Under the pieces are notes generated by a model. The model had not been told where the DNA came from and searched no databases. It saw only the letters and a program-made list of their open reading frames with translations. The translations under genes and the position numbers were made by a program. Positions 11,048-16,025 of a DNA stretch of 59,048 nt are shown here, piece after piece. Numbering within the stretch: the stretch's first letter is position 1; every line of letters begins with the position of its first letter. The DNA is taken from the IMG/VR virus record IMGVR_UViG_3300047550_004734, positions 1 through 59,048 of that record; one strand, given 5' to 3'. Source of the stretch: a virus.

Positions 11048-11737
11048 TCAACCAAGAATACTTGCAATCCAATCTTCGCTCATATTAATCATGATTCTTT
11101 CTGCAGATTCTACGTTAGACGCATAACCCTCATCAAGAAGGTGTGAAAGGATGATGTCGTAGATATCCACTTGTTCTTTACGAATAATCTCCCTTGAGAG
11201 TTTTGATTTTTTTCTTGGATAAGTAACTGCTTGTGGTTCACCAGCACCTTTTACAACACGAGTAACTTCTGCAGCATGACGGCTTCCATACTCTCTTGCC
11301 ATTTGACCCGTCATTCTCTTTCCATAAGGCTTTTCACGGTCCATTCTTTGCGAAACAGTTTCAGTTTCACCACCTTTTCTCTTAAGTGCTGAAGATGGTG
11401 TTGCTCTATCTTTCCAATCCTTAAACTTATCTTCTGGACCATAACCACTCTGACCTTTTGCAGATGCTACCTTTTTTTGTGCTGCTTTTTTTTCTCCTGC
11501 TCTGATTTCTGCTTGAGTTGGATTTGGGCGATATGCCTTGACTCCAGGTGCTCTTTCCTCTTCAACATATGCTTCATAAAGTTCTGCCCAAGTATATTCA
11601 CTCAAGTCATAATCTTCTTCTACAAGTGAATTTATCCAATTTTCAAAATCTTGTTTTTCTTCTAGTTCCTCACGAAGATTTTGATTATAAACTGCATGAT
11701 ATGCAGTTACACACTCTCTTAGAATTTTTGAATCCAT
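11048..11737 (-). CDS. Accessory late protein with LLDEGYA motif, possible internal virion protein
   Basis: A 229-residue, highly charged protein. The N-terminus MDSKILRECVTAYHAVYNQN resembles that of the 14246-14728 protein (MDAQDFRSLQEAYLGVY). The middle is basic and disordered (KAAQKKVASAKGQSGYGPED, MDREKPYGKRMTGQMARE). The C-terminal 45 residues (VDIYDIILSHLLDEGYASNV, then MSEDW) are nearly the same as in that protein, including about 83% identity at DNA level. There is no enzyme motif. The late promoter 29 bases upstream and terminators on both sides make it an independent late unit. An internal head protein role is inference. Confidence 0.8.
   Translation of the reverse strand: MDSKILRECVTAYHAVYNQNLREELEEKQDFENWINSLVEEDYDLSEYTWAELYEAYVEEERAPGVKAYRPNPTQAEIRAGEKKAAQKKVASAKGQSGYGPEDKFKDWKDRATPSSALKRKGGETETVSQRMDREKPYGKRMTGQMAREYGSRHAAEVTRVVKGAGEPQAVTYPRKKSKLSREIIRKEQVDIYDIILSHLLDEGYASNVESAERIMINMSEDWIASILG
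11073..11176. repeat. Duplicated coding segment, copy A
   Basis: About 104 bases encoding the LLDEGYA C-terminal motif. They align without gaps to 14421-14524 with about 18 mismatches by eye. Confidence 0.85.
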
Positions 11738-11971: not shown

Positions 11972-12381
11972 AGATCTCCCTCAACACGATTTTCAGAGCG
12001 ATAAACATCAAAACTCCCTTCAGGATAACGAGCACTCAGTTTCTCATAGTTCATCTTGAGAATCTCTTCGAAGTTAGTATCAAGTGCCATAAATGCTTGA
12101 GACAGATACCAACAGATGTCTCCAAGTTCACGCTTTAGATGAAAAGCATTTTCTTCATTATAAGGTTTGCCCTGAAGAAAAATCTTTTTGACAACTTCAG
12201 TAAACTCACCTGCTTCAGCACTCATACCAAGAGCAGCGGTCAGAAGACGAGGAACATCAGCGTCAGTACTTGCTTCAAGTTCAGTCATACGAGTAAGCAA
12301 AGTAGCAAAATCACTACTAGCAGGACTTGTGGTTTGACGAACGAATTCAATATATTTGTTCGTATCAATAACTTGTGTCAT
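11968..12381 (-). CDS. mazG: MazG-like nucleotide pyrophosphohydrolase
   Basis: A 137-residue all-helical protein of the MazG/dUTPase superfamily, which hydrolyses NTPs or alarmone-like nucleotides to monophosphates. The metal-binding motifs are visible: EAGEFTEVVKK near residue 57 and ELGDICWYLSQA near residue 85. An open frame extends 57 codons further upstream inside gp41C; the start at 12381, immediately after the gp41C stop (TAATATG), gives the normal family length. Cyanophage MazG has been discussed as altering host nucleotide or ppGpp pools, but the substrate of this one is unknown. Confidence 0.9.
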   Translation of the reverse strand: MTQVIDTNKYIEFVRQTTSPASSDFATLLTRMTELEASTDADVPRLLTAALGMSAEAGEFTEVVKKIFLQGKPYNEENAFHLKRELGDICWYLSQAFMALDTNFEEILKMNYEKLSARYPEGSFDVYRSENRVEGDL

Positions 12382-12382
12382 A

Positions 12383-13552
12383 TTAGAATTTAAATCCTTC
12401 AAATGATTTTTTGGGTTTTCTTTCTTCATAATCATACTCTTCATCCTTTCCATTGTCAAGAATATCTTCCTGAGCAGATTGTTCGCAGTCATAAAGACGC
12501 ATTTTTGCTCTATCAATTCCAAGTACAAAACGCTTATGAATGGTTGGATCATTATAACGATTCTTCAGTTGTTTTACAAGAATCTGTCCCAGTCCCTCCA
12601 ATTCTTCAGTACTGATAAGAGCAAACATCAAGTCAGCAGTAGCAGGAAGACCAAAAGACTCAGAAGTATCAGTTAATTCTATGTCAGATGACCCAAAACC
12701 AGATCTAGTCGTTTGTGTCGCACTGACGATTGGAACATTAAACTCTACAGCAAGACCGCGAAGTTCTTCTGCAATGGCTTTCACAAATGTATATGAATTG
12801 ATATTACTGTTTCCTTTGTATCTACTAGAAGCACAGATATTCAGATAATCAATAAAAATAATGTCTGGATGAAATGACTTCTTAAGAGAAAGTTCGTTAA
12901 GAAGCGACTTGAAATGTCCAGCATGTGCAGAAGCAGTTGGGTACTCTTTAATAATTAAAGTTCCTTGCGTCTTTTTTGCAAGATTATTTACCTTATTTTC
13001 AAACATCTGTTTAGGAAGATTCACAATATCTTGAATAGGAACATTCAAGAGGTTTGCATCAATTCTTTCAGCAATACGTTCTTCTGCCATTTCCAACGTA
13101 ATGTACAGAACGTTCCGTCCTTGGAGAAGAACTGATGCTGCTACGTGACACATAAACAAAGATTTTCCAACTCCAGTATTATGAGAAGAAATACCATTAG
13201 TATAATACCTATGATTTGGATGATTTACATTAATATCCACAATAGGTATTTGATTTCCTGTTTTAAATACACTACCAAGTTTATATCCATTTTCCGTTAG
13301 AAAATGCATTATCTGGTATTTTTCATAAAGATGAGATGCTTTCATCCATCCAAAAGATGTTTCAAATAAATGATCTGCATTACATTTGATTGGTTCATAT
13401 CCATCAACCTTTAAAACATATTCATCATACATTCCCTTATTAATGAAAAAATTAACAGGAACATATCCATCGGGTGAATCAACTTCTACCTCATATCCAT
13501 TATCAAGTAATGTTTTGATTTCAGCAATTGATGTTTCTTTTTCAATCCACAT
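12383..13552 (-). CDS. 41: gp41 replicative helicase, C-terminal half fused to a C-intein
   Basis: A 389-residue protein. Residues 1-125 are a C-intein half: block B-like IKCNADHLFETSFGW near residue 55, block F-like IPIVDINVNHPNHRYYTNG, and the terminal SSHN. Residues 126-389 are the helicase C-extein, beginning TGVGKSLFMCHVAA (rest of Walker A), then DIIFIDYLNICASS (Walker B) and IVSATQTTRSGF (hexameric helicase motif). Trans-splicing with the N-half at 14735-15376 would give about 458 residues (194+264), close to T4 gp41 (475). There is no clear Shine-Dalgarno sequence, and a late promoter faces the other way five bases upstream. Confidence 0.93.
   Translation of the reverse strand: MWIEKETSIAEIKTLLDNGYEVEVDSPDGYVPVNFFINKGMYDEYVLKVDGYEPIKCNADHLFETSFGWMKASHLYEKYQIMHFLTENGYKLGSVFKTGNQIPIVDINVNHPNHRYYTNGISSHNTGVGKSLFMCHVAASVLLQGRNVLYITLEMAEERIAERIDANLLNVPIQDIVNLPKQMFENKVNNLAKKTQGTLIIKEYPTASAHAGHFKSLLNELSLKKSFHPDIIFIDYLNICASSRYKGNSNINSYTFVKAIAEELRGLAVEFNVPIVSATQTTRSGFGSSDIELTDTSESFGLPATADLMFALISTEELEGLGQILVKQLKNRYNDPTIHKRFVLGIDRAKMRLYDCEQSAQEDILDNGKDEEYDYEERKPKKSFEGFKF
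13178..13552 (-). other. C-terminal half of an atypically split intein
   Basis: This is 125 codons ending Ser-His-Asn before Thr of the C-extein. With the 19-residue N-half the intein totals 144 residues, the size of a minimal splicing domain without an internal endonuclease. The C-half carries everything after the first strand, including the block B Asp-His. Confidence 0.92.
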
Positions 13553-13556
13553 TTTA

Positions 13557-13564
13557 TATAAATA
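13557..13564 (+). promoter_or_regulatory. Late promoter TATAAATA for the HNH nuclease
   Basis: A perfect TATAAATA on the plus strand, 23 bases before the HNH gene at 13587. It points away from gp41C and lies only five bases upstream of the gp41C start codon. Confidence 0.85.
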
Positions 13565-13586
13565 ATAGTATTAGCAGGGACAGGGA

Positions 13587-14249
13587 ATGTTTGATCGTAT
13601 CTATTCTAACTTATGCGACAGCAATAAGTCAAGGAAAGACGACTATAAAAAATATTCTGGATTACACGAACATCATATTGTTCCTAAACATATGGGAGGG
13701 ACAGATAAAGACTGTAACCTTACATATTTAAATGTTAGAGAACATATCATAGCACATTATTTGTTATGGAAAATATACAAAAATCCAAATGATTTAAGGT
13801 CTATGAAAATGTTAGGAGCAAACTTATCTCCACAACACAGAAGAATAACAGGAGAGTTTTGTAGAGATAATGAAATTGGTTTGTTTTCCACACCAATAGA
13901 AGAAAGAAGAGAATGGATGTCTAAAGGAATAGAAACACAAAAACAAGAATACTTACAAAACAACACTAAAAACTTTTACTATTGGAGCACAGAAGAAGGA
14001 AGAAAAGAAAGAGCATCACTTGGAGGAAAGCAAAGAGCATCCAAAGAATTTAATTACTGGGCGTCCAATCAAGGGAGAAAAGAAAGAGCATCTCTTGGCG
14101 GAAAAGCACACAAAGGTAAAAAAGTAATGCACTTACCAGGAACAAAAGGATGGAAAAGAATATTACCAGAAGATATTGATATTAAACTAAATGAAGGTTG
14201 GAAGTTTGGAACTGGAGAACCAGCACCAAATTCTAAAGTTAGAAATTAA
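13587..14249 (+). CDS. HNH homing-type endonuclease inside the gp41 fracture
   Basis: This 220-residue protein is the only convincing plus-strand gene. An HNH core lies at residues 25-65: LHEHHIVPKHMGG, then NLTYLNVREHIIAHYLLWKI. Two DNA-binding-type repeats follow near residues 130-175 (GRKERASLGGKQR and GRKERASLGGKAH, NUMOD3-like), and a C-terminal KGWKRILPEDIDIKLNEGW segment common in phage homing nucleases. It lies between the two intein-bearing gp41 halves, where a free-standing homing endonuclease would cleave intein-less gp41 genes and drive spread of the break. GGGA before the ATG gives a ribosome-binding site. Its stop shares the palindrome TTAA with the convergent gene. Confidence 0.92.
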   Translation: MFDRIYSNLCDSNKSRKDDYKKYSGLHEHHIVPKHMGGTDKDCNLTYLNVREHIIAHYLLWKIYKNPNDLRSMKMLGANLSPQHRRITGEFCRDNEIGLFSTPIEERREWMSKGIETQKQEYLQNNTKNFYYWSTEEGRKERASLGGKQRASKEFNYWASNQGRKERASLGGKAHKGKKVMHLPGTKGWKRILPEDIDIKLNEGWKFGTGEPAPNSKVRN

Positions 14250-14728
14250 CTAATTAAAGGAACCCCTATTGCTCCAAGTGCCGTTGTTACAGCAAATCTT
14301 TTTGCTTTTTTATAAGCATCGGAATTCCTTACTTCTTTACCAACTTTTTTTAATGCTCTTTTTGCAAGTTCAGTTTTCCAACCTTCACCAAGCATTTCAT
14401 CAACAATACTCTCTCTCCACTCTTCGCTCATATTTACCATAATTGCTTGTGCAGATTCTATAGTTTCTGCATATCCCTCATCAAGAAGATGTGAGAGGAT
14501 GATGTCGTAAATATCCACTTCTTCACCAATTCCTCTATCGTTCCATGCTTTTTTTTCTCTTGAGGACATTTGTTGTAAGGTTGATTTTCTAGTATTCATA
14601 TAACCAGCAGGTGCCTTACGATCATACTTTGATTGTCCTTTAGGTGGAGTTGCATCTTGTTCTTCATCAAGGTCTTGATAAACTCCTAAATATGCTTCTT
14701 GAAGACTACGAAAATCTTGTGCGTCCAT
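14246..14728 (-). CDS. Accessory late protein inserted in the gp41 fracture
   Basis: A 160-residue protein. N-terminus MDAQDFRSLQEAYLGVYQDL; a basic linker (KGQSKYDRKAPAGYMNTRKS); the motif VDIYDIILSHLLDEGYAETI shared with 11048-11737; and a basic, then hydrophobic C-terminus (FAVTTALGAIGVPLIS). Its ATG lies six bases after the N-half stop of gp41. An AATAAATA late element lies within the N-intein coding sequence 21 bases upstream, so this late gene is nested in an early gene. LQE-Ala near residue 12 fits a gp21-type cleavage site. Function unknown; an internal head protein is inferred. Confidence 0.82.
   Translation of the reverse strand: MDAQDFRSLQEAYLGVYQDLDEEQDATPPKGQSKYDRKAPAGYMNTRKSTLQQMSSREKKAWNDRGIGEEVDIYDIILSHLLDEGYAETIESAQAIMVNMSEEWRESIVDEMLGEGWKTELAKRALKKVGKEVRNSDAYKKAKRFAVTTALGAIGVPLIS
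14421..14524. repeat. Duplicated coding segment, copy B
   Basis: Partner of 11073-11176; same reading frame and strand. It shows that the gene in the gp41 break shares recent ancestry with the late gene 3 kb away. Confidence 0.85.
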
Positions 14729-14734
14729 TTTTTT

Positions 14735-15376
14735 TTACACTATGCTTTTATTTATTTTAAATCTAATTCTAACTTTGGTTTCTGGATGAACGCAACCAGC
14801 AAGAGCGATATTGAGAGTTTTGTTAGGGAGACCACCTTTCGTGATTTTATTAAAGTAATCAAGATCAAATTCAATTTTATCCTCCTTTTTATGATAAGAT
14901 TCATATCGTTGTTCGTAGTCTTCCAAGTAATCATGACCGATATGATTATCAAAACTTACAGCAAGAGCATCGGAAAGAATAGAAGGAATGCTATCACGAT
15001 TTTTCTTTTCATCTTTACCGTCAGCAATGTGAATGGCTTCAATAAGAGCAAGATAAATTGCTCGATCACGACACCATTTTTCTGTTGTTGAAACTAACCA
15101 GTTCATTTCAACAGGCACATCTTCCAAACAAGAAATCAATTGAAGTATTTCCTTAAAAGAAGTTTCATTAATGTCTTTACGTTTTTCTACTTCGATACAA
15201 AGAACTTCTTTAGTTGCTAAGCTATTATATTCGGAAACAAAATCAAGAATTTCTTCAAAAACAATCTTCTGATTTTGATCTTCAAAATACTCAGATTTTA
15301 TAAAAGGTAACACTTTACGGATATATTCTTCATTATAGAGGAGATTTCTTAAAATTAAAAATTCAATTTTTTCCAT
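14735..15376 (-). CDS. 41: gp41 replicative helicase, N-terminal half fused to an N-intein
   Basis: A 213-residue protein starting MEKIEFLILRNLLYNEEYI. Residues 1-194 are the helical N-domain and start of the RecA-like domain of the gp41/DnaB helicase, ending NKTLNIALAG just at the Walker A loop. Residues 195-213 (CVHPETKVRIRFKINKSIV) are a 19-residue N-intein starting with the Cys of the first splicing step, followed by a stop. The protein alone lacks Walker A and B and cannot be an active helicase. Joining to the Thr of the C-half restores LAGTGVGKS. It overlaps the 2OG oxygenase by 14 bases. Confidence 0.93.
   Translation of the reverse strand: MEKIEFLILRNLLYNEEYIRKVLPFIKSEYFEDQNQKIVFEEILDFVSEYNSLATKEVLCIEVEKRKDINETSFKEILQLISCLEDVPVEMNWLVSTTEKWCRDRAIYLALIEAIHIADGKDEKKNRDSIPSILSDALAVSFDNHIGHDYLEDYEQRYESYHKKEDKIEFDLDYFNKITKGGLPNKTLNIALAGCVHPETKVRIRFKINKSIV
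14738..14794 (-). other. N-terminal half of an atypically split intein
   Basis: This is 19 codons with block A form Cys-Val-x-x-Glu-Thr-x-Val. It is far shorter than the roughly 100-residue N-halves of classical split inteins (DnaE, gp41-1) and resembles the rare short-N class reported from environmental T4-like sequences. Confidence 0.9.
14749..14756 (-). promoter_or_regulatory. Late-type promoter element AATAAATA inside the N-intein
   Basis: AATAAATA on the minus strand, 21 bases upstream of the ATG at 14728 and within the last codons of the N-intein ORF (Lys-Ile-Asn-Lys). Confidence 0.55.
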
Positions 15377-16025
15377 AGTTAAAAGCAAATGATATACTCA
15401 TTCTAACCTTATTTTCTCTAAAAGGAAGAACTGTGTGAATAAGATATGTTGGAAATAAAACCAATATAGATGGAGTTGGATATAAGTGATAAAAATCTAG
15501 ATTATATGGAGAAGGTTTATCTTTCAATAGATGTACTTTTAATCCATATGAAGGGTCTTGAAAAACTAAAGATCCACCATTGATATTATCCCAAGTACCT
15601 GCTTTAATGGGATTTCCTTTAGTATAATTAAATTTCCAATCCTCACCTTGAATAGATTCTATTGGATAATAAACCCCAGCAAGAGCACTAGTTCCGTGAT
15701 GGTGAGAAAAATTAAAGTCTCCACTTTGATTAATATTTGCCCATAAATCAGTACAAACTAATCCAGTTTTATATCCGTGCTGTTTACAATACAAATCACC
15801 ACACTTAGTCAGAATTGAACACAACTCAGAATAACTTTCATATTTATTTTCTAAATCTGGTTTGCTATGCCAACCACCAACGTTACTATGATCCTCACCA
15901 GATGGATCTTTGTTTTGCTCAATTAAAGTATCTTCGACAAGTTTGATATTTAATTCATGATTTTGTTTTCCAAAGTTAACAATGCCTATAGGAATTGGAA
16001 ATAATGGAACGGAATTAAGATCCAT
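15363..16025 (-). CDS. 2OG-Fe(II) oxygenase family protein
   Basis: A 220-residue protein. The iron-binding region is visible: DFNFSHHHGTSALAGVYYPI (His-rich first strand), GGSLVFQDPSYG, then LVLFPTYLIHTVLPFRENKV with the distal His and Arg followed by RMSISFAFNYG. This layout is typical of phage 2-oxoglutarate/Fe(II) dioxygenases, which hydroxylate protein or nucleic-acid substrates; the substrate is unknown here. The Met at 16025 gives MDLNSVPLFPIPIGIVNFG, a normal family start, overlapping uvsX by 11 bases. Its position between uvsX and gp41 suggests co-expression with replication genes. Confidence 0.85.
   Translation of the reverse strand: MDLNSVPLFPIPIGIVNFGKQNHELNIKLVEDTLIEQNKDPSGEDHSNVGGWHSKPDLENKYESYSELCSILTKCGDLYCKQHGYKTGLVCTDLWANINQSGDFNFSHHHGTSALAGVYYPIESIQGEDWKFNYTKGNPIKAGTWDNINGGSLVFQDPSYGLKVHLLKDKPSPYNLDFYHLYPTPSILVLFPTYLIHTVLPFRENKVRMSISFAFNYGKN

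What the first reader, a model, noticed from the sequence alone, without database searches (positions are those of the whole stretch)
13557..14249. Opposite-strand HNH nuclease with its own late promoter sits in the helicase break
It is the only convincing plus-strand gene in 59 kb, with HNH motif, DNA-binding repeats, and a perfect TATAAATA 23 bases upstream. Its target is probably the intein-less gp41 Walker A site, making the split helicase a collaborative homing element: two intein halves plus a trans-encoded nuclease. Late expression would delay cutting until many genomes are present in a mixed infection.
Basis: partly seen in the sequence, partly recalled or inferred. Interest (0 to 1): 0.75.

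Follow-up and report, generated by a model that had tools for sequence, protein, structure and literature searches.

The report
Homing nuclease inside a broken helicase
A cyanophage helicase gene is cut in two by a split, self-splicing intein that carries a DNA-cutting enzyme gene on the opposite strand; comparison with many relatives suggests that the whole package copies itself into intact helicase genes of other phages and may switch itself off through a copy of its own target site.

Summary
The HNH gene (13587-14249, +) is real and sits between the halves of a gp41 helicase broken at Walker A by an atypically split, VidaL-like intein (IntN 19 aa, IntC 125 aa). All 68 close HNH relatives found lie at the same break; 54 of 57 fully read inserts carry the nuclease antisense. 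Intein and nuclease distances track each other (r 0.79) but hardly the helicase (0.12, 0.30), and inteins at most 3% different sit in helicases at least 20% different (21 pairs, no reverse case). Intein-bearing alleles differ from their nearest intein-less relatives by a one-sided patch starting at the insertion site on the gp41C side, as homing into intact gp41 with a cut just downstream would leave. Between late promoter and nuclease start lies a 21-nt copy of the intein-less target, 15 of 21 identical to the nearest real site, reminiscent of the I-TevI autorepressor operator. Nuclease-free scars, re-fused inteins and swapped nucleases show turnover. New variant of the known 'fractured gene' arrangement.

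The parts
13587..14249 (+). HNH homing-endonuclease-like ORF, 220 aa
13557..13564 (+). TATAAATA, T4-type late promoter motif for the nuclease
13565..13585 (+). ATAGTATTAGCAGGGACAGGG, copy of the intein-less gp41 site (codons I-V-L-A-G-T-G; target is I-A-L-A-G^T-G); putative operator
13178..13552 (-). IntC, 125 aa, starts MWIEKETS, ends SSHN before Thr+1
12383..13177 (-). gp41 C-terminal extein (from TGVGKS, Walker A), one piece here
14738..14794 (-). IntN, 19 aa, CVHPETKVRIRFKINKSIV, then stop at 14735-14737
14795..15376 (-). gp41 N-terminal extein, ends IALAG
14246..14728 (-). ORF160, variable passenger gene between IntN and the nuclease (phrog_3708, unknown function)

Best explanation
This is a composite homing element: an atypically split intein in Walker A of gp41 plus an antisense HNH nuclease with a late-promoter motif, placed between the intein halves. 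The nuclease recognises the intact, intein-less site I-A-L-A-G^T-G and cuts shortly downstream in gp41C. Repair from the carrier genome copies nuclease, both intein halves and passengers into the recipient, with up to about 20 codons of gp41C. The helicase is then made as two chains rejoined by protein trans-splicing. Shown here by sequence: anatomy, co-transfer, one-sided conversion tracts, the target copy in the 5' UTR, loss and re-fusion, nuclease exchange. Inferred: cleavage and its place, trans-splicing, late timing, and that the 5' UTR copy is an operator at which the nuclease limits its own transcription.
For: All 68 loci have the nuclease beside gp41N and/or IntC. Nuclease distance versus IntC core r 0.79, versus gp41N 0.12, gp41C 0.30; gp41N-gp41C 0.66 (36 alleles). 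Synonymous difference among group A: exteins mostly 0.3-0.6 up to both junctions, IntC 0.03-0.26. 21 pairs with IntC at most 3% and gp41N at least 20% different, 0 reverse, of 1711; e.g. L106/L027 IntC 8/375, gp41N 210/582. Intein+ versus nearest intein-less: far 0.29, right codons 1-10 0.61, left 1-10 0.30; matched controls 0.26, 0.31, 0.18; clean tracts in L126/L190, L034/L192, L007/L221, L005/L209. Target copy: all 9 fixed LAGTG positions in 46, at least 8 in 53, of 66 alleles; the pattern with its leading codon occurs once in 1.40 Mb (both strands) of intein-less loci outside gp41.
Against: No cleavage, binding or splicing was measured. 13 of 66 alleles lack the target copy: 7 carry another 5' UTR, a hairpin in the 6 that were folded, the 4 of L069 type have LAGS only, and L130 and the truncated L147 have none. 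The closest intein+/intein-less pairs (L039, L013, L114, L107, L106) show no long right tract. 15 of 62 control pairs also show right-side excess above 0.15 (32 of 48 for intein+). Left excess is weak but not nil (9 of 48 vs 2 of 62). P-values ignore relatedness. The intein-less set was selected by likeness to one phage gp41.
Confidence: 0.72

Rival explanations
1. The nuclease homes on its own into intein-bearing alleles that lack it (its docking site is the intein gene), and the intein spread separately.
For: It sits inside the intein gene at one fixed point: its stop codon overlaps IntN codons in 29 of 54 antisense ORFs. Nuclease types are swapped within nearly identical inteins (4 pairs with IntC at most 3% and nuclease at least 30% different; L125/L037 IntC 1/375, gp41C 0/483, HNH 207/510). 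IntC codons 1-20 are unusually uniform between groups A and B.
Against: Nuclease and intein distances agree (r 0.79); conversion tracts begin at the intein/extein border, not at the nuclease; the 5' UTR copies the intein-less site, not an intein sequence.
Confidence: 0.15
2. Ordinary phage recombination moved the intein; the nuclease is a passenger or cuts elsewhere.
For: Some alleles keep the intein with a broken or absent nuclease (L091, L097, L104, L135, L138); T4-like phages recombine a lot (general knowledge).
Against: Sharp one-sided tracts at exactly the insertion site and 0 of 1711 pairs with the reverse pattern.
Confidence: 0.1
3. The 5' UTR LAGTG stretch is only a ribosome-binding region or chance, not an operator (this rival concerns that part alone and can hold together with the best explanation).
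For: It is purine-rich and lies just before the ATG in most alleles; absent in 13 of 66. A codon-weighted PWM ranks it only 5th in the window.
Against: Only 2 further core matches in 1.40 Mb outside gp41; distant alleles L063, L066, L146 keep it, and changes in the AGTG codons are mostly at third positions (14 of 19) although its frame relative to the nuclease start differs between alleles.
Confidence: 0.4

Closest known systems
Fractured genes (Dassa et al. 2009, NAR 37:2560; paper not held, content recalled)
   Same: Phage replication enzyme broken by a split intein with a free-standing endonuclease gene between the halves
   Different: Here the nuclease is HNH and antisense with a late-promoter motif, the IntN is only 14-23 aa, the site is Walker A, and homing tracts, scars and re-fusions are seen
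VidaL and other atypically split inteins (IntN 15-37 aa; passages of PMC13014065)
   Same: Short IntN; cis form L106 matches VidaL (PDB 6vgv, E 3.2e-12)
   Different: Distant in sequence (alignment); native context of VidaL not checked
Collaborative homing (passages of PMC10448857)
   Same: A separate nuclease gene mobilises a neighbouring self-splicing element
   Different: Cases described in those passages are introns; here a split intein, with the nuclease inside the break
I-TevI autorepression (passages of PMC2988022)
   Same: Homing-site copy at the late promoter of the nuclease (15/20 identity there, 15/21 here)
   Different: HNH with a split intein, not GIY-YIG in a group I intron; binding untested

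Membership tests
Fractured gene | Conserved enzyme gene broken in two by a split intein | tested here: met
   gp41N-IntN* and IntC-gp41C
Fractured gene | Free-standing endonuclease gene in the break | tested here: met
   54 of 57 fully read inserts antisense, 1 sense, 2 remnants
Fractured gene | EDxHD/Vsr-type nuclease (about half of the original set, recalled; not obligatory) | tested here: not met
   HNH instead
Atypically split intein (VidaL class) | IntN of 15-37 aa, homology to known members | tested here: met
   IntN 14-23 aa (19 in the window); VidaL E 3.2e-12
Atypically split intein (VidaL class) | Trans-splicing activity | not testable with these tools
   Cys1, C-terminal HN and Thr+1 are present
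HNH homing endonuclease | Conserved H-N-H catalytic core | tested here: met
   Foldseek gives only weak HNH matches (best E 0.34, prob 0.84)
HNH homing endonuclease | Cuts or nicks the allele lacking its gene | not testable with these tools
   only indirect: tracts
Collaborative homing | Nuclease and splicing element inherited together into empty alleles | tested here: met
   indirect
I-TevI-type autorepressor | Sequence similar to homing site at the nuclease's late promoter | tested here: met
   15 of 21 identity; at least 8 of 9 fixed positions in 53 of 66 alleles
I-TevI-type autorepressor | Nuclease binds operator and represses | not testable with these tools
   none
Group I intron | Intron RNA in the insert | tested here: not met
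   0 Rfam matches in 12000-16000; compact inserts are little longer than the nuclease gene

The most novel reading that the evidence does not exclude
A split intein's mobility is run by an opposite-strand HNH nuclease that is also its own late repressor: it reads the same Walker A codons, tolerant of third positions, as homing site in intact gp41 and as operator in its 5' UTR, so one DNA-binding specificity sets both target and dose; lineages alternate between this operator and a 5' UTR hairpin.
Probability: 0.35. Interest if true: 0.75.

Novelty: new variant of a known kind. Interest (0 to 1): 0.62.

Why it matters
How split inteins arise and spread is largely inferred from single loci (general knowledge). 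Here dozens of alleles show the stages side by side: compact nuclease-bearing split, split with passengers, nuclease swap, nuclease-loss scar with overlapping halves, and an in-frame fused intein nested among split ones. The conversion tracts and the 5' UTR copy predict the target and the side of the cut, so collaborative homing of an intein becomes directly testable with one purified enzyme and a few short DNAs.

Tried and rejected
Group I intron as the reason for the break: no Rfam match and no room in compact alleles. Reading of LAGTG as translated N-terminus: its frame relative to the ATG differs between alleles. A codon-weighted PWM of the intein-less site ranked the 5' UTR copy only 5th of about 118,000 window positions (rank 1 is the left half site at the gp41/IntN border) and best-in-locus in only 3 of 66 alleles; the codon-degenerate form is the better test but was chosen after seeing the sequence. 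The idea that contiguous inteins are the ancestral empty state: they are nested in split alleles in the IntC tree (bootstrap not fully settled), next to L027, whose nuclease clade matches, so re-fusion after loss is preferred. Searches for print: (0 papers for the last); in their listings I saw no description of this gp41 Walker A element. The library lacks most subscription papers, Dassa 2009 and the VidaL paper among them. Papers were read only as passages.

Full report
WHAT IS THERE. The window is a 59-kb fragment of an uncultivated virus whose gp41 C half is 84.6% like that of Synechococcus phage S-SRM01. On the minus strand gp41 is read as an N part that ends IALAG and runs into CVHPETKVRIRFKINKSIV and a stop, and a C part that begins with 125 residues ending SSHN before TGVGKS (Walker A). 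Between them lie ORF160 (-) and the HNH ORF (+). The contiguous form of this intein in L106 matches VidaL (PDB 6vgv, E 3.2e-12) and weakly gp41-1, and natural atypical inteins have IntN of 15-37 aa (PMC13014065, passages read). So the helicase is broken by an atypically split intein.

RELATIVES. Scans of IMG/VR gave 68 nuclease loci and 80 IntC loci (many contigs in both). Together with the window these are 149 rows, 79 distinct by the stretch from gp41N end to IntC end. All 68 nuclease loci have gp41N and/or IntC next to the nuclease. Of 57 distinct alleles with both borders and an insert over 300 nt, 54 carry an antisense HNH ORF of at least 190 aa, 2 carry remnants (L091, L097), and one (L130) a sense HNH of another kind. 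In 29 of the 54 the nuclease stop codon lies inside IntN codons, at the same place from 94% down to 37-41% nuclease identity: one old insertion point. Passenger ORFs differ between alleles: the ORF160 family in 11 of the 57, other sense ORFs in L003, L014, L026, L029, L031.

STATES WITHOUT NUCLEASE. L106, L107 and L114 (and L109-L111, which read the same) go straight through as one intein (RKISWWIEKET). L104/L105 keep ...RKIS* and restart at ATGGAATTTATTGAA; the bases up to GAATTT equal the nuclease 3' end of L025, so this looks like a deletion scar. L135 (TAATG) and L138 have overlapping halves without insert. In the IntC tree the contiguous alleles lie inside the split ones, beside L027, and the nuclease tree groups L013, L020, L027 likewise. 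I take the fused form as derived; the opposite is not excluded.

MOBILITY. Among group A alleles exteins differ at mostly 0.3-0.6 of same-residue codons right up to the junctions, IntC at 0.03-0.26. Nuclease distance follows the IntC core (r 0.79, 0 of 1000 permutations), not gp41N (0.12) and weakly gp41C (0.30) (36 alleles after leaving out 15 of 51: distant ones and the L069/L047 nuclease types; with the L069/L047 types in and the distant ones out, the nuclease-IntC core correlation is 0.27 and nuclease-gp41 -0.02 and 0.07). 21 of 1711 pairs have IntC at most 3% and gp41N at least 20% different; none the reverse. Nucleases are also exchanged inside almost identical inteins (4 pairs).

FOOTPRINT OF HOMING. 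Codon +1 after the site is ACT in 30 of 33 group A alleles but in 9 of 81 intein-less ones. Synonymous differentiation peaks in the first 10 right-hand codons (A: 4 of 449 windows as high; B: 22 of 449) and stays high over the first 20 (5 of 439 in each), not on the left. Against the nearest intein-less relative, 48 intein+ alleles differ by 0.61 in right codons 1-10, 0.49 in 11-20, 0.38 in 21-30, but 0.30 in left codons 1-10 and 0.29 far away; 62 matched control pairs give 0.31, 0.24, 0.19, 0.18, 0.26. L126/L190 shows the tract in right codons 1-10 and no difference in 20 left codons. By analogy with I-TevI, which stays bound on one side and biases co-conversion to the other (PMC2988022, passages), this suggests binding over the left side and cutting on the right; inference.

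THE 5' UTR COPY. Directly after TATAAATA stands ATAGTATTAGCAGGGACAGGG: as codons I-V-L-A-G-T-G, against I-A-L-A-G^T-G in the intact gene; 15 of 21 identical to the nearest of 35 distinct intein-less sites, and agreeing with nearly all first and second codon positions there. The degenerate pattern occurs once in the window on both strands, and outside gp41 the core occurs twice and the longer form once in 1.40 Mb (both strands counted) of intein-less loci. 53 of 66 alleles have at least 8 of 9 fixed positions, 46 all nine. Distant alleles L063, L066 and L146 keep it with third-position changes. [quoted passage not shown] Seven distant alleles lack it; six were folded and show a 5' UTR hairpin of -10 to -15 kcal/mol instead (L144, nearly identical to L143 there, was not folded). 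Hairpins before other T4-type homing genes are described in the same review.

VERDICT. The operator reading is the most novel part and the least secured.

Noticed in passing
L082 2351-4268, L089 2760-4071, L109 6799-7530: A second break in gp41 (after ...TTRSGY) holds what I recognise from memory as the gp41-1 split intein, with a sense-strand GIY-YIG-like ORF in L082 and L089; such helicases come in three pieces with two split inteins. The same second break shows in the matches of L006, L015, L050, L097, L106, L110, L111; in L135 the match ends there.
   Followed up: partly
L130 74-1818: Sense-strand HNH in the same break and a duplicated extein stretch TKGGLPNKTLNIALAG before the intein Cys; could be an assembly fault.
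   Followed up: no
L058, L059, L060, L064, L143, L144, L145, between TATAAATA-like motif and the nuclease ATG: Hairpin (GTAGGTCGCGG..CCACCTAC and paired variants) in place of the target copy; stems vary on both sides.
   Followed up: partly
L150 2875-3456 (S-SRM01), L160, L188: A different HNH gene on the sense strand near intact gp41; in S-SRM01 it is annotated as hypothetical and lies between the RecA-like recombinase and gp41.
   Followed up: no
window 14246-14728 and 11048-11737: Two minus-strand genes match one PHROG of unknown function (phrog_3708); relatives recur as passengers in the intein break, and a similar ORF lies in the second break of L082.
   Followed up: no
L047 885-1511: Nuclease looks chimeric: N part like the window's, C-terminal part like the L069 type, in which Pfam sees an I-TevI-like DNA-binding domain below its cut-off.
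   Followed up: partly
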